A stretch of DNA of 64,000 bases from positions 3,331,631 to 3,395,630 of the forward strand of contig KB904821.1 of the NCBI GenBank assembly GCA_000380225.1, in the 5' to 3' direction. How positions within the stretch are numbered: the stretch's first letter is position 1; every line of letters starts with the position of its first letter. A program made the position numbers and the translations under genes. The notes under the pieces are model-generated. The model did no database searches, was not told where the DNA came from, and saw only the letters and a program-made list of their open reading frames with translations. Below are positions 4,882-31,536 of the stretch, piece after piece. This DNA comes from a filamentous cyanobacterium ESFC-1. Lineage in GTDB: Bacteria > Cyanobacteriota > Cyanobacteriia > Cyanobacteriales > Spirulinaceae.

Positions 4882-5754
4882 TTAGGCGGGGGTAATGCTG
4901 GCAATTTTGCCACCCACGCGGTTCACTTCTTTAAGGGTTTGGGAAAGCTTGTCATAAGGTACAAGGTAAGCCCGACTGCTGCGACGCACACGGGGATAGC
5001 CTTGTTTGACTAAGCTGGTAACTTCGACACGATACATCCGCGCCGATTGAGCGCCAAAGGGGGTGGTTCCGCCGAGGGCTTGGTTCGGGGTGGTGTTATC
5101 TGCCGATTCGCGATAAGCCCAACCGTTGTTACTGCCAGACTGACCCACCACAGGGGAAGCGTCATTACGAGCTAACTCTCCGGCTAAACGCGATTGGCTG
5201 CCTTTGATTTGAGCGCGATCGCTATTGGCATAACCGCGATACAATTGGAACATCCGGGTAAAGCCAACGGTCTTTTGGCCTTTTTGGTTGTTAAAGCCCC
5301 GGTAATAAGGCACAACGTTTTCACCGAAGTTGTTTTGATACTCCTCGCTGTCAATATAGGAGTTCACTTCTTCGGCGTAGCCTTTTTCCTGATACAAGTC
5401 GAGGTGGTAGATCACCTCGGCTTCGTCATAGGGAGCGCGGCCTAAAAGGTGTTTGTAGCTCAGTTCGATGAACCGGGTTTGAAAGTTGCTGTAGAAAAAC
5501 TTTTTCTTGTACAACTCGGATTGTGCCACGGCCCGTACAAAGTCCCGCACGGTGATGTAACCATTCCGCAACAAAGACTCGGCGCTGTTTAGGCGCTCGG
5601 ATTTCATAATGTAGTCGTTACCGAGGACTTGACGGTAAACGGCGCGAATGACGTTTTGTACATCGTCTTCGGTGAAGTTCGAGCGCAATTCCACCCGTGG
5701 GGCTTCACTAAAGGCAGATGTACCCAAACGGGATGCTGCTGTTGTTATTGCCAT
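4882..5754 (-). CDS. cpcC: Phycobilisome 32-kDa-class rod linker CpcC
   Basis: 290 aa. Rod linker that joins phycocyanin hexamers. It has an N-terminal PBS_linker_poly domain (about residues 20-180; [54 protein letters not shown]) and a C-terminal CpcD-like domain (about 235-288; [19 protein letters not shown] ending [10 protein letters not shown]). It sits between cpcA and cpcD, the usual order. A strong hairpin separates it from cpcA, which should lower its expression relative to cpcBA. Confidence 0.95.
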
Positions 5755-25363: not shown

Positions 25364-25567
<204 letters not shown>

Positions 25568-25577
25568 GAAAAACTTT

Positions 25578-25723
25578 GCCGCACCCCAACATTAAAAGCT
25601 TACATACTACCGTCTACGAAACGGAAGGTTGTGGGTTCGAGTCCCGCCATCGTCACTTTTTTTAGACGATGTAGCTCAAACGGATAGAGCATTTTATGAA
25701 ATGGCTTTTTCAACTTGTGCGGC
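25578..25723 (+). ncRNA. Y-RNA-like element A with circularly permuted tRNA-like module
   Basis: Closing stem GCCGCAC (25578-25584) / GTGCGGC (25717-25723), then conserved CCCAAC and ACTT in the internal loop, then inner stem AAAAGC (25594-25599) / GCTTTT (25704-25709), then TTACATAC. Inside, tRNA parts come in permuted order: anticodon-arm-like hairpin CCGT-CTACGAA-ACGG (25610-25624; loop as in tRNA-Arg ACG), T arm GTGGG-TTCGAGT-CCCGC (25631-25647), acceptor 3' strand CATCGTC (25648-25654), 10-nt loop, acceptor 5' strand GACGATG (25665-25671), then TA and D arm GCTC...GAGC (25674-25690). Bacterial YrlA-type Y RNAs are known tRNA mimics of this kind. Confidence 0.75.
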
Positions 25724-25744
25724 TCTTATTTTTCTATTTAGTCT

Positions 25745-25809
25745 AGAACCCCGGTTTCTTTTGGGTTTATTTACTTAAGTTATAGTTTTTACTCAGAAAC
25801 CGGGGTTCT
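25745..25809. repeat. AGAACCCCGGTTTCT hairpin element, copy 2
   Basis: Perfect 15-bp arms AGAACCCCGGTTTCT (25745-25759) and AGAAACCGGGGTTCT (25795-25809) with a 35-nt AT-rich spacer. Lies between RNA elements A and B. A degraded piece of the GGCTCTGCTTTCATT repeat follows at 25830-25880. Confidence 0.85.
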
Positions 25810-25922
25810 GAACCCTAACTCTTTAACCTCGTAACTTGGCTCAAGTCCCGTTACAAAAAAGAAGGCTCTGCTTTCATTCCAATCCCAAAAACTAAACCCA
25901 ATCTTCCTCCTACAAAGCTACA

Positions 25923-26056
25923 ATTCGCGTCCCAACTGACAAAGCTTACACGCATTTAGAGCAACTTGGTAGCTCGTTTGATTTAGCATCAAAAGGTTAC
26001 AGGTTCAAATCCTGTAATGTGTACCACAAACTACAGCTTTCTCGACTTACGCGAAT
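25923..26056 (+). ncRNA. Y-RNA-like element B enclosing a complete linear tRNA-like module
   Basis: Closing stem ATTCGCGT (25923-25930) / ACGCGAAT (26049-26056), internal loop CCCAACTGAC / CTCGACTT, inner stem AAAGCT (25941-25946) / AGCTTT (26035-26040), then TTACA. In contrast to elements A and C the enclosed tRNA is in normal order (25950-26026) with an intact acceptor stem and CCA. The outer stem therefore brackets both tRNA ends. Confidence 0.75.
25950..26026 (+). other. Linear tRNA-like sequence, apparent anticodon UAG, encoded CCA
   Basis: Acceptor ACGCATT / AATGTGT (7 bp with one G-U), TA at positions 8-9, D arm GAGC-AACTTGGTA-GCTC, G26, anticodon arm TTTGA-TTTAGCA-TCAAA, 5-nt variable loop, T arm ACAGG-TTCAAAT-CCTGT, then A-CCA. 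UAG would read Leu CUA, but tRNA-Leu should have a long variable arm, and the base after the anticodon is C where a purine is expected. More likely a mimic or an odd tRNA than a normal decoding tRNA. Confidence 0.55.
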
Positions 26057-26102
26057 CTTTATTTCAAAACCATGACCTGTCTCAACTCACAATAACAAAA
26101 TT

Positions 26103-26249
26103 ACCGCGCCCCAACCCGCAAAGCTTACACACATTAAGTTTACCCATCATCGTAGGTTCGAGTCCTACTAGCTGCGCCTTTTATGCAGCTATAGCTAAGG
26201 GGTTAAAGCAATGGGATTGTGATTTTTTAGCTTTACTTACTTGTGCGGT
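26103..26249 (+). ncRNA. Y-RNA-like element C with circularly permuted tRNA-like module
   Basis: Closing stem ACCGCGC (26103-26109) / GTGCGGT (26243-26249), loop CCCAACCCGC / ACTTACTT, inner stem AAAGCT (26120-26125) / AGCTTT (26229-26234), then TTACACAC. Permuted tRNA order: anticodon-stem 3' strand CCCAT (26143-26147), T arm GTAGG-TTCGAGT-CCTAC (26152-26168), acceptor 3' strand TAGCTGC (26169-26175), 9-nt loop, acceptor 5' strand GCAGCTA (26185-26191), TA, D arm GCT...AGC (26194-26209), A, and anticodon-stem 5' strand ATGGG (26211-26215) pairing CCCAT. The RNA ends thus leave through the anticodon position. Confidence 0.75.
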
Positions 26250-26359
26250 TTATTTCATTTCCAGATTTTACCTAGAAATACGAAAACAAGGCTTTATTTC
26301 AACTCTAAGACCGTAAAATATGATGAGAAGTTTAGTTTAAATTTGACAAAATATTCTAT

Positions 26360-26480
26360 TTCGCGCCCCAACTGTGAAAGCCTACATACTAGCCTAATGG
26401 TAAAGGCACTTGACTCATAATCAAGCGAATACGGGTTCAACTCCTGTGTGTGACACAACAGCTTTCCAAACTTGCGCGAA
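26360..26480 (+). ncRNA. Y-RNA-like element D with linear tRNA-like module, anticodon CAU
   Basis: Closing stem TTCGCGC (26360-26366) / GCGCGAA (26474-26480), loop CCCAACTGTG / CCAAACTT, inner stem AAAGC (26377-26381) / GCTTT (26461-26465), then CTACATAC. Linear tRNA-like 26383-26454: D arm GCCT-AATGGTAA-AGGC, anticodon arm CTTGA-CTCATAA-TCAAG (CAU), T arm ACGGG-TTCAACT-CCTGT. The acceptor (TACATAC / GTGTGAC) pairs only over five positions and no CCA follows, so it is degenerate as a tRNA. The conserved TACATAC motif doubles as its acceptor strand. Confidence 0.7.
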
Positions 26481-26515
26481 TCCCTCTTTTAAATTTTAGT
26501 TTTCCCAATACATTT

Positions 26516-27232: not shown

Positions 27233-27309
27233 CCTTTTCAACCCTACCCAGATACAGTATTAAAATTCCCGACAACTGAAAAGCGCCTGAATAACGGGGA
27301 GGTGAAACC

Positions 27310-27675
27310 ATGAGCGCAAAAGTATTGTCGATTATCGAACAAATGAAAACCTTAACGCTGTGGGAAGCCACCGAATTAATTCATCAAATCGAAGATACTT
27401 TCGGTGTGAGCGCCTCCCCGGTGCATCAACAAATCAAAAATCACTTGATTGAAACCCCCAATCTTTACGATGTTATTTTAGAAGCCGTTCCCAAAAGTAA
27501 GAAAAGCGCTATTATCAAAATCGTTTGGAACTTCGCCGGAGAAGGGTTAAATCATGCCCGTAAACTGGTCGAATCTGCACCCGTTTTGATTAAAAAAGAT
27601 GTCGAATACCGACGCGCTTTCGCCTTCAAACAGCAACTGGAACGTTTAGGCGCAACAGTTACTTTACACCCGTAA
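27310..27675 (+). CDS. Stand-alone ribosomal protein L7/L12-like protein
   Basis: 121 aa, the size of bL12. Residues 1-40 resemble the dimerising N-terminal domain (LSIIEQMKTLTLWEATELIH, FGVSASP), the hinge is short, and residues 55-121 match the C-terminal fold (YDVILEAVPKSKKSAIIKIV, GLNHARKLVESAPVLIKKDV, LERLGATVTLH). The true rplL normally sits in the rplKAJL cluster; here it lies between a Ro60-locus gene and RNA elements, so this is a paralogue. bL12 recruits translational GTPases to ribosomes. A similar contact role in an RNA surveillance complex is an inference. Start is supported by GGGGAGGTGAAACC. Confidence 0.75.
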   Translation: MSAKVLSIIEQMKTLTLWEATELIHQIEDTFGVSASPVHQQIKNHLIETPNLYDVILEAVPKSKKSAIIKIVWNFAGEGLNHARKLVESAPVLIKKDVEYRRAFAFKQQLERLGATVTLHP

Positions 27676-27684
27676 AGATTCACC

Positions 27685-27745
27685 AACCCCGGTTTCTTAT
27701 TTCCTTATCCGATAACGTAATCTTTTAATATCAGAAACCGGGGTT
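27685..27745. repeat. AACCCCGGTTTCT hairpin element, copy 3
   Basis: Arms AACCCCGGTTTCT (27685-27697) and AGAAACCGGGGTT (27733-27745). It follows the L7/L12-like stop by 9 bp and precedes RNA element E, so it could terminate the upstream transcript. Confidence 0.8.
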
Positions 27746-27763
27746 CTAGGATACAAAAATATT

Positions 27764-27881
27764 GCCGCACCCCCATGCACGGGACTTACATACCTTCGAC
27801 CAAAACTACGGTACGCTTACGAAGAAAGCGTTGCAAGCCTGAGACCCATAGCAGGCATACAGTCCCGCCGACTTGTGCGGC
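27764..27881 (+). ncRNA. Y-RNA-like element E, no tRNA module
   Basis: Closing stem GCCGCAC (27764-27770) / GTGCGGC (27875-27881), identical to element A. Internal loop CCCCATGCA / CCGACTT, inner stem CGGGACT (27780-27786) / AGTCCCG (27861-27867), then TTACATAC. The interior has hairpins such as GCCTG...CAGGC (27837-27856) but no T loop or acceptor stem. It shares the scaffold with A-D but carries another apical domain. Confidence 0.65.
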
Positions 27882-27922
27882 TCATCCCTTGGCAATCTCA
27901 GAAAAATAAATTAGCAACTGTC

Positions 27923-27993
27923 GCCGCGCCCCCACCCAGAGGGCATACATACACCTGTAACGTGTTTCCCAACGCCCCCTAAACTTGCGCGGC
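27923..27993 (+). ncRNA. Y-RNA-like element F, minimal form
   Basis: Shortest element, 71 nt. Closing stem GCCGCGC (27923-27929) / GCGCGGC (27987-27993), CCCCAC on the 5' side and AACTT on the 3' side of the internal loop, inner GGGC (27941-27944) / GCCC (27974-27977), the ATACATAC motif, and a small apical hairpin ACAC-CTGTAAC-GTGT (27951-27965). No tRNA-like part. It ends 75 bp before the Ro60 start codon. Confidence 0.6.
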
Positions 27994-28005
27994 CTCAATC
28001 TTTGA

Positions 28006-29520
<1,515 letters not shown>

Positions 29521-29544
29521 ATTACTGCTAGGGTGGGTATTATA

Positions 29545-29919
29545 CTCACCCTTTCTATTTTCTCCAAAATTCCAGCGAGCTGTTTTTTTGCTAATTCTGT
29601 ATTGTGTAGTTTGCTCTCCTTGCTGCACTGTATAACGTATTTCAACATTTGAAACTGTATCCCATTGGGTATCTTGAAAAAAGGATGAAGGAAAATAAGT
29701 TTCGTTTTTTGTTTTTCCTTCATAACAACTTGCTAGTGCTTTTAGAGCAGTTGTTTTTCCAGTACCGTTTTCTCCAACAATTGCTACAACTGGAAACTTA
29801 AACTGAATAGTTTGTCCAGTCCAACCTCTTAAGCCAGAAATCTCCAGTCGATGTATAAACTTTGGCCAGAGGTCTGCTGTAAATTGCTCCTTGATTTTAT
29901 TGATTTCATTAAAGTCCAT
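29545..29919 (-). pseudogene. Truncated AAA ATPase (SMC/RecF-like N-terminus)
   Basis: The intact start MDFNEINKIKEQF leads into FIHRLEISGLRGWTGQTIQF and a Walker A AIVGENGTGKTTALKALAS, as in AAA_23/AAA_15 family ATPases. Family resemblance stops after about 115 residues, and the frame runs on to 29470 antisense to the end of the Ro60 gene. Walker B and signature motifs are absent, so this is a 5' remnant of a longer gene. The loss point coincides with the Ro60 3' end, suggesting a rearrangement junction. Confidence 0.65.
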
Positions 29920-30036: not shown

Positions 30037-31536
30037 TTATTCGTACAAGCGAGCTTCTAGCTGTTTAAGAATTTTTTTCGGGTTGTTTTTATTGCCTTTC
30101 GTATATTTCCAAACCGCTAAACCTACCCCTGCTGCAACAACTGCTGCACCACCTGTCATAACACTAACACCCCCTAAAGCTGCCATTGTTGCGCTGTAAG
30201 CTGCTGCACCAGAGAGAGTACCAATTGCAGTACCCGTACTTGCTACACCAAACACGCTCACTGCTGTCCATGCTGTCCAAATTGTAGCCGCACTGGTCGC
30301 AACACCCACACCCGCAGCAATACCTAAATTCTTTTTGTCTTCAGCGTCCATCTGAGTAAAAGAAGCGACTGATACCAGTGCTGCGGCTCCAAATAATGCT
30401 GCTCCTCCGGTAGCTACGGCTAATCCACCGAGCATTCCCAAACCTCCCGCAGCAACAGAACCACCACCAAGAAGCGCTAAGGTTGAGTTCGTGGCTGCGG
30501 CTCCAGAAAGACCGCTAATAGCTACACCTGTTCCGGCTTTAGCTCCTATTGCACTGGCAATATGTGTTGTATTAGGAACTATTCCCGCAGCGCGTTTAGA
30601 AGCTTTCTTCACAACTTTGTAGGTTTCATACACCTGGTTGAGCGTTTCTTCTTTGGATTGATTAGATTGACTTGCACTGACAACCCCATCACGCATTAGT
30701 TTATACATAACTTTGCACTGCTCAGGGATATCAGAAGATAAAATTAGTCGATCTAATTGATTAACAATTAATTGATTGAGTTTGCCTTTTCCATCTCGCA
30801 ATTTTTCATAATTTGAAATAAATACATCATTCTCATTCGGAGGAATAAAAGTTTCAATTAAGTTAATGATATACCAATTTGTTGTTGCTACCTTACAAGC
30901 CGCACTTCCCTGAAAATAAAACTGTTTTATTTCTTCAGGAATTGAAACACTTTGTACCAAGGAGTCTGATTTTGCTAATCCGTTTAAGTCTTCAATCCAA
31001 TCACCAGCTTTCACTTGCTGATAAATACCTATTAATTCCTTTTGCTCTTTTTGAGATAGTAAAGAGTCATGCAATTTTTCTTTTACCGAATTTTCGAGCC
31101 AAAGCAATCGTGAATTTTTGCTGGCTATACTATAGGTTTCAGCAACTACTGGAGATACCTTTGCAGATACAATAACAAAATCTAGTAAATTTAGAGCAGC
31201 TATATCTTCCGAGTATTTTTCCTGCTTTAACAGGTTGTATACTTTCATACACCGTTCTTGGCTCTGATTTTTTATCTCAGTACGATGTAATACTTCATTA
31301 ATAACTCGATCGAATTCTAATTCAGTATCAAAGAGTGAGTGAGTTACTAATTTAATCTCTATATTATTTTTCTTAATACTTAAGTCACTACCGTTAAAAC
31401 AGTTCGATGGGATTCTGACTTTGATGGTGTTACCAGATTTTAAAGTAATGCTTTGAAGGCCACCGTGTTTGGCCACATCTTGTGATAAAAATACATGATA
31501 CGTTTGTTCTAAAGTCATAATTGGCTCTTTGCTCAC
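30037..31536 (-). CDS. Protein with DnaJ-C-like N-terminus and C-terminal glycine-zipper membrane region
   Basis: 499 aa, not assigned to a known family. Residues about 10-60 contain GGLQSITLKSGNTIKVRIPS, similar to the beta-strand substrate-binding region of DnaJ C-terminal domains. A helical middle (60-330) follows. From about 345 to 480 it is Gly/Ala-rich with two related blocks: GTGVAISGLSGAAATNSTLA with LLGGGSVAAGGLGMLGG, and GTGTAIGTLSGAAAYSATMA with LGGVSVMTGGAAVV. These look like glycine-zipper hydrophobic helices able to enter membranes. The tail is Lys-rich. A membrane-perforating effector is one possibility; this is speculation. The region is AT-rich and accessory. Confidence 0.6.
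   Translation of the reverse strand: MSKEPIMTLEQTYHVFLSQDVAKHGGLQSITLKSGNTIKVRIPSNCFNGSDLSIKKNNIEIKLVTHSLFDTELEFDRVINEVLHRTEIKNQSQERCMKVYNLLKQEKYSEDIAALNLLDFVIVSAKVSPVVAETYSIASKNSRLLWLENSVKEKLHDSLLSQKEQKELIGIYQQVKAGDWIEDLNGLAKSDSLVQSVSIPEEIKQFYFQGSAACKVATTNWYIINLIETFIPPNENDVFISNYEKLRDGKGKLNQLIVNQLDRLILSSDIPEQCKVMYKLMRDGVVSASQSNQSKEETLNQVYETYKVVKKASKRAAGIVPNTTHIASAIGAKAGTGVAISGLSGAAATNSTLALLGGGSVAAGGLGMLGGLAVATGGAALFGAAALVSVASFTQMDAEDKKNLGIAAGVGVATSAATIWTAWTAVSVFGVASTGTAIGTLSGAAAYSATMAALGGVSVMTGGAAVVAAGVGLAVWKYTKGNKNNPKKILKQLEARLYE

What the first reader, a model, noticed from the sequence alone, without database searches (positions are those of the whole stretch)
27310..27675. Free L7/L12-like ribosomal stalk protein in a Ro60 locus
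A full-length bL12-like protein (N-terminal dimer domain and C-terminal domain) is encoded outside any ribosomal cluster, between the basic protein and the RNA elements. bL12 recruits translation GTPases. Combined with tRNA-mimic RNAs and Ro60, this suggests a surveillance complex that touches the ribosome or its factors.
Basis: partly seen in the sequence, partly recalled or inferred. Interest (0 to 1): 0.72.

Follow-up and report, generated by a model that had tools for sequence, protein, structure and literature searches.

The report
Ro60-linked ribosomal-stalk protein paralog
Many cyanobacteria keep, next to a relative of the human Ro60 autoantigen and its tRNA-like Y RNAs, a second dedicated copy of the ribosomal stalk protein that normally recruits translation factors, which ties a Ro60 RNA-handling particle to the protein-synthesis machinery by genome evidence.

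Summary
The gene at 27310-27675 encodes a full-length bL12-like protein. The genome has a separate genuine rplL after rplA-rplJ, so this is a paralog. The neighbour at 28069-29520 is a divergent Ro60: Pfam TROVE misses it, but its model matches D. radiodurans Rsr over 438 residues (Z 20.9). Six Y RNAs flank the bL12-like gene. The paralog lies upstream of Ro60, same strand, in 24 of the 80 best Ro60 loci (a remnant in one more). All 29 paralogs form one clade apart from 30 RplL (99/99), are under purifying selection and have lost the Ala/Gly hinge. In 386 cyanobacterial genomes an intact full-length second bL12 was found only beside Ro60 (5 of 29 Ro60-bearing, 0 of 357 others). Six Ro60 loci in two lineages also carry an EF-Ts paralog. 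In 19 of 29 copies the GTPase-contact patch is kept at 97.7%; the window's, Spirulina and Okeania copies have altered it. Best reading: an accessory subunit linking the Ro60/Y RNA particle to translation GTPases, probably EF-Tu, or to the 50S stalk. Biochemistry is untested.

The parts
27310..27675 (+). bL12-like paralog (Ro60-associated stalk protein), 121 aa
   Evidence: clade of Ro60-linked paralogs
27328..27423 (+). L12_N dimerisation domain of the paralog (residues 7-38)
27466..27666 (+). L12 C-terminal domain (residues 53-119); GTPase-contact patch partly altered (S66, W73, N81, R84 in E. coli numbering)
27296..27305 (+). Shine-Dalgarno sequence GGGGAGGTGA
28069..29520 (+). divergent Ro60 (HEAT-repeat ring plus vWA domain with DxSxS motif), 483 aa
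26516..27232 (+). basic protein (MSEHRL... family, GTG start set by homologs), 238 aa, no known fold found
   Evidence: recurrent in Ro60 loci (32 loci)
25367..25567 (+). conserved 66-aa protein upstream of the Y RNA array
   Evidence: in 59 of 81 Ro60 loci, same strand
25576..25727 (+). Y RNA element 1; tRNA-like module apparently in permuted order
25922..26059 (+). Y RNA element 2 with tRNA-like module (called tRNA-Leu by ARAGORN)
26101..26253 (+). Y RNA element 3; tRNA-like module apparently in permuted order
   Evidence: fold z only -1.75
26358..26484 (+). Y RNA element 4 with tRNA-like module (called tRNA-Met by ARAGORN)
27762..27885 (+). Y RNA element 5, between bL12-like gene and Ro60
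27921..27997 (+). Y RNA element 6, short form just upstream of Ro60

Best explanation
The gene encodes a dedicated paralog of ribosomal protein bL12. It split once from cyanobacterial RplL and became an accessory subunit of a Ro60/Y RNA system. The proposed working is as follows. The N-terminal domain makes a dimer that docks on a partner: Ro60, the basic protein, or uL10 on the 50S subunit. The C-terminal domain, on a less flexible linker, presents the translation-GTPase binding patch, so that EF-Tu or another GTPase is brought to the Ro60/Y RNP or the RNP is brought to the ribosome. tRNA-like Y RNAs and, in two lineages, an EF-Ts paralog fit the same target. In the window's lineage the patch has changed, so its partner may differ or recruitment may be weakened. 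Shown here: paralogy, single origin, linkage, selection, patch retention in most lineages, EF-Ts paralogs, Y RNAs, Ro60 fold. Inferred: complex formation, GTPase binding, and EF-Tu as the target.
For: Separate RplL in the genome. Intact full-length second bL12 only beside Ro60 in 386 genomes: 5 of 29 versus 0 of 357, Fisher p 1.7e-6. 24 of 80 named Ro60 loci carry it, always upstream and same strand. One clade, 99/99. dN/dS 0.11-0.47. GTPase patch kept 97.7% in 19 core copies against 72.9% of equally invariant CTD sites, permutation P 0.011; N-terminal invariant sites kept 81% overall. EF-Ts paralogs directly downstream of Ro60 in six loci, five of them with bL12 or its remnant, in genomes that also hold a normal tsf. 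Covarying tRNA module in Y RNAs. Ro60 fold. Co-inheritance of bL12 and Ro60, Mantel r 0.82. The bL12 C-terminal domain is the common binding site for translation GTPases, including EF-Tu (PMC10931766). D. radiodurans Rsr acts in rRNA maturation and decay (PMC4726728).
Against: No interaction was tested. Most Ro60 loci with enough upstream sequence (46 of 65) lack the gene, so it is dispensable. bL12 presence does not go with more Y RNAs (2.8 against 2.4 elements). In Okeania, Spirulina and the window the patch is not preferentially kept. EF-Ts paralogs are in two lineages only, and the EF-Ts/bL12 association (p 0.010) ignores shared ancestry. The tRNA-like module is closed inside the Y RNA stem, so it has no free aminoacylated 3' end of the kind EF-Tu normally binds.
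Confidence: 0.45

Rival explanations
1. Alternative ribosomal stalk or docking subunit: the paralog replaces one or more RplL dimers on uL10 and so docks the Ro60/Y RNP (with a nuclease such as PNPase) on the 50S subunit, for 23S rRNA maturation or ribosome decay under stress. The N-terminal domain is the working part and the CTD is secondary.
For: N-terminal invariant sites are kept at 73-85% in every lineage group, including those whose CTD patch diverged. D. [quoted passage not shown]
Against: The GTPase patch is selectively kept in 19 copies, which docking alone does not need. EF-Ts paralogs do not fit. The uL10 contact residues were not mapped.
Confidence: 0.28
2. The bL12 fold is reused only as a dimeric scaffold or adaptor inside the Ro60 RNP, with no present tie to ribosome or GTPases.
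For: Loss of the Ala/Gly hinge in all copies (48% Ala+Gly in RplL linkers against 2-14%). Altered patch in Okeania, Spirulina and the window. Net charge is +2 in the window and +4.5 in the Spirulina copies against about -9 in RplL.
Against: Selective retention of the GTPase patch in 19 of 29 copies, and linked EF-Ts paralogs.
Confidence: 0.17
3. Chance neighbour or hitchhiker: a spare or stress-form rplL that happens to sit by Ro60.
For: Patchy presence; several decayed copies.
Against: Single clade, found only beside Ro60, always upstream and on the same strand, across many cyanobacterial families, co-inherited with Ro60.
Confidence: 0.05
4. The gene is simply the genome's ribosomal rplL.
For: Domain content.
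Against: Genuine rplL present after rplA-rplJ; below the TIGR00855 cut-off; outside the RplL clade.
Confidence: 0.01

Closest known systems
Ribosomal protein bL12 (RplL, L7/L12)
   Same: Same two domains (L12_N dimerisation domain and L12 CTD) and similar length; descends from cyanobacterial RplL
   Different: Not in the rplJL cluster, scores below the equivalog cut-off, Ala/Gly hinge replaced, own clade linked to Ro60; GTPase patch altered in the window copy
D. radiodurans Rsr / Y RNA / PNPase complex (RYPER)
   Same: Ro60-fold protein (2nvo, Z 20.9) next to Y RNAs with a basal stem and tRNA-like module
   Different: Sequence too far for Pfam TROVE; locus carries bL12 and sometimes EF-Ts paralogs, a basic protein and a 66-aa protein; any PNPase link is untested
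Salmonella rsr-yrlBA-rtcBA RNA repair operon
   Same: Ro60 plus tRNA-like Y RNAs; some cyanobacterial loci hold RNA repair genes (KptA in 9, an RNA ligase in 6 of 80)
Elongation factor Ts (Tsf)
   Same: The linked copy tested scores above the tsf cut-off (TIGR00116, 168.6 bits); linked copies keep the TDFV motif
   Different: Second copies beside Ro60, lacking the C-terminal tail of the genome's own Tsf; none in the window

Membership tests
Ribosomal bL12 (RplL) | L12_N and L12 CTD domains in one protein | tested here: met
Ribosomal bL12 (RplL) | Above curated equivalog cut-off TIGR00855 | tested here: not met
   77.3 against 84.4 bits
Ribosomal bL12 (RplL) | Encoded after rplJ | tested here: not met
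   The genome's rplJ-rplL pair is elsewhere
Ribosomal bL12 (RplL) | Ala/Gly-rich flexible hinge | tested here: not met
   6% Ala+Gly in the window linker against 48% mean in RplL
Ribosomal bL12 (RplL) | Conserved GTPase-contact patch in the CTD | tested here: not met
   Window copy 38% identical at patch sites; 19 other paralogs 99-100%
Ribosomal bL12 (RplL) | Assembly on uL10 in the 50S stalk | not testable with these tools
   needs ribosome fractionation or binding assay
Ro60 / Rsr | HEAT-repeat ring plus vWA domain fold | tested here: met
   2nvo Z 20.9 over 438 residues; human Ro60 9nen Z 20.2
Ro60 / Rsr | Pfam TROVE sequence match | tested here: not met
   no hit at E 1; PHROG 850 RNA-binding 1.3e-4; PDB profile search top hits are TROVE proteins at E 0.11
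Ro60 / Rsr | vWA metal-binding DxSxS motif | tested here: met
   D306, S308, S310 invariant in 14 homologs
Ro60 / Rsr | Y RNA binding | not testable with these tools
   Y RNAs are adjacent; binding not tested
Bacterial Y RNA | Basal stem joining 5' and 3' ends, supported by covariation | tested here: met
   (0 of 500 shuffles reach the covariation score)
Bacterial Y RNA | tRNA-like module | tested here: met
   acceptor-, D-, anticodon- and T-arm helices 91-99% paired in 33 sequences

The most novel reading that the evidence does not exclude
Cyanobacterial Ro60/Y RNPs form a machine coupled to translation factors: a dedicated bL12 (and in some lineages a dedicated EF-Ts) loads EF-Tu or another translation GTPase on tRNA-like Y RNA or on damaged ribosomes, so that Ro60-guided RNA surveillance is driven or gated by a translation GTPase.
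Probability: 0.3. Interest if true: 0.9.

Novelty: new variant of a known kind. Interest (0 to 1): 0.74.

Why it matters
What Ro60 and Y RNAs do in bacteria outside Deinococcus and Salmonella is largely open. A bL12 paralog found only at Ro60 loci, with EF-Ts paralogs in some and tRNA-like Y RNAs nearby, gives a concrete and testable link to translation GTPases or the 50S stalk. It also shows a ribosomal stalk protein gaining a stable second role, and adds a Ro60 branch that standard family models miss.

Tried and rejected
Plain rplL: rejected. Second L12-CTD matches in G008, G027, G060, G172, G224, G255 and G355 are CTD-only, tandem or fused proteins, not full-length second copies. Link between bL12 presence and number of Y RNAs: none seen. 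Basic protein: no Pfam, NCBIfam, PHROG or PADLOC family and no PDB fold match; the model is only moderately confident. EF-Ts paralogs as one clade: not decided, AU p 0.21. Literature: the papers most likely to mention such neighbourhoods (Burroughs and Aravind 2016; Sim et al. 2020; Chen et al. 2014) are not held, so earlier notice of the bL12-Ro60 link cannot be excluded; searches for Ro60 with stalk protein or EF-Tu gave nothing relevant in the titles and abstracts listed.

Full report
Observation. The ORF at 27310-27675 (+) encodes 121 residues with an L12_N domain (7-38) and an L12 C-terminal domain (53-119). It has a strong Shine-Dalgarno sequence. It scores below the curated cut-off for ribosomal L7/L12. 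The genome (5.63 Mb, 100% complete) has one other bL12, 129 aa, directly after rplA and rplJ. So the gene is a paralog.

The neighbour. The ORF at 28069-29520 has no Pfam TROVE hit. Its AlphaFold model (14-sequence alignment, mean pLDDT 71.6) matches D. radiodurans Rsr (2nvo, Z 20.9, 438 residues aligned), human Ro60 (9nen, Z 20.2) and phage TROVE proteins, well above unrelated vWA proteins. A profile search of PDB sequences puts TROVE proteins on top at a weak E of 0.11; PHROG 850, an RNA-binding family, hits at 1.3e-4. It is a divergent Ro60.

The RNAs. Six elements in the window share a basal stem (5' CGCGCCC-type arm, 3' ACTTGYGCGG-type arm) and an inner stem. The scan found 198 such hits (some overlapping) in 71 of 81 loci. 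Two size classes were tested. The ~118-nt class (33 sequences) has 95.6% of cells paired and 115 cells changed on both sides; the ~74-nt class (26 sequences) has 90.8%. In both, 0 of 500 shuffles reach the covariation score. The structures were drawn by eye from these alignments, which favours them to some degree. The 118-nt class holds a tRNA-like module (acceptor, D, anticodon and T arms). The two tRNAs called by ARAGORN and Rfam are such modules, not free tRNA genes. Published bacterial Y RNAs have a basal stem that tethers Rsr and a tRNA-like domain (PMC8394870).

Linkage. Ro60 of this family is in 29 of 386 cyanobacterial genomes. A profile of the paralog finds an intact full-length second bL12 in five genomes, all beside Ro60, and none among the 357 genomes without Ro60 (Fisher p 1.7e-6). 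A sixth, beside Ro60 in G129, is broken. Other second matches that were inspected are CTD-only or fused proteins. Two further genomes with two weaker matches (G299, G369) were not looked at one by one. Among the 80 best Ro60 loci of a genome-wide scan, all titled as cyanobacteria but one MAG, 24 carry a bL12-like gene (one of them split, L121; one lacking its start, L124) and one more a remnant (L138), always upstream and on the same strand. Of loci with at least 3.5 kb upstream, 19 carry it and 46 do not.

Phylogeny and selection. 29 Ro60-linked copies form one clade against 30 RplL, support 99/99. The window copy has the longest branch and joins the two Spirulina-type copies. dN/dS between close pairs is 0.11-0.47. 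On the Ro60 tree presence of bL12 needs 11 changes, at least 6 on firm branches, and bL12 and Ro60 distances agree (Mantel r 0.82, 24 loci). With a single-origin paralog this points to inheritance with repeated loss, though transfer is not excluded.

Anatomy. All copies lost the Ala/Gly hinge (2-14% Ala+Gly against 48%). The GTPase-contact positions used here (E. coli 65, 66, 67, 69, 70, 73, 80, 81, 84) come from general knowledge of bL12. In 19 copies they are kept at 97.7%, against 72.9% for other CTD sites equally invariant in RplL (P 0.011). In Okeania (0.60 against 0.57) and in Spirulina plus window (0.48 against 0.60) they are not preferentially kept. N-terminal invariant sites are kept at 73-85% in all groups. 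The window copy has S66, W73, N81 and R84.

A second translation factor. Six loci (L111, L112, L113, L123, L131, L138) have an EF-Ts gene just downstream of Ro60. Their genomes also hold matches to a separate tsf; this is clear for G386, G387, G390 and G391, while the copies in G388 and G389 lie partly on contig fragments. The linked copies keep TDFV, and the complete ones lack the C-terminal tail. Five of six are in loci with bL12 or its remnant (p 0.010, not corrected for ancestry). One or two origins remain open. The window's genome has a single EF-Ts.

Other recurrent neighbours: a 66-aa protein (59 of 81 loci, in the window at 25367-25567), the basic protein (32), a 147-aa protein (29), a ThiF-like protein and a 276-aa protein downstream (34 and 37), KptA (9) and an RNA ligase (6).

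Mechanism. The bL12 CTD recruits translation GTPases (PMC10931766) and EF-Ts acts on EF-Tu; Y RNAs here imitate tRNA. The simplest joint reading is that some Ro60/Y RNPs work with a translation GTPase, EF-Tu first, or with the 50S stalk. The alternative stalk-docking model fits the kept N-terminal domain and the known role of Rsr in rRNA maturation and decay (PMC4726728). The window copy, with an altered patch, may have moved to another partner. None of the binding steps is shown.

Novelty. The parts are known kinds; the combination is, as far as the held library shows, not described. Three likely sources could not be read.

Noticed in passing
25576-25727 and 26101-26253: Two Y RNAs appear to hold tRNA-like modules in permuted order (T arm and 3' acceptor strand before 5' acceptor strand and D arm).
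   Followed up: partly
25950-26026 and 26383-26456: tRNA-Leu(TAG) and tRNA-Met(CAT) called by ARAGORN and Rfam lie inside Y RNA stems; likely mis-annotation as free tRNA genes.
   Followed up: partly
25367-25567: 66-aa protein with no family match, present on the same strand in 59 of 81 Ro60 loci.
   Followed up: partly
L165:11380-12015 and L166:14356-15183 (many loci, not the window): ThiF/E1-like protein and a 276-aa protein downstream of Ro60 in 34 and 37 of 80 loci; possible ubiquitin-like link.
   Followed up: partly
L129:12625-13170; L138:9477-10466: RNA 2'-phosphotransferase KptA (9 loci) and an RNA ligase (6 loci) near Ro60.
   Followed up: partly
L134, ORFs starting near 5117 and 5669: Okeania sp. 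SIO3I5 has two tandem bL12-like genes before Ro60.
   Followed up: no
27686-27749 and about 25743-25818: Inverted repeat AACCCCGGTTTCT...AGAAACCGGGGTT occurs twice in the locus.
   Followed up: no
29470-29919 (-) and 30037-31536 (-): Short AAA ATPase ORF matching the N-terminal part of PADLOC HEC-04, and a glycine-rich protein matching PDC-M09A, downstream of Ro60.
   Followed up: no
NZ_CP083583.1 (Kovacikia minuta plasmid pA); NZ_CP051207.1 (Dolichospermum plasmid): The same Ro60 family occurs on two cyanobacterial plasmids, one of them in pieces.
   Followed up: no
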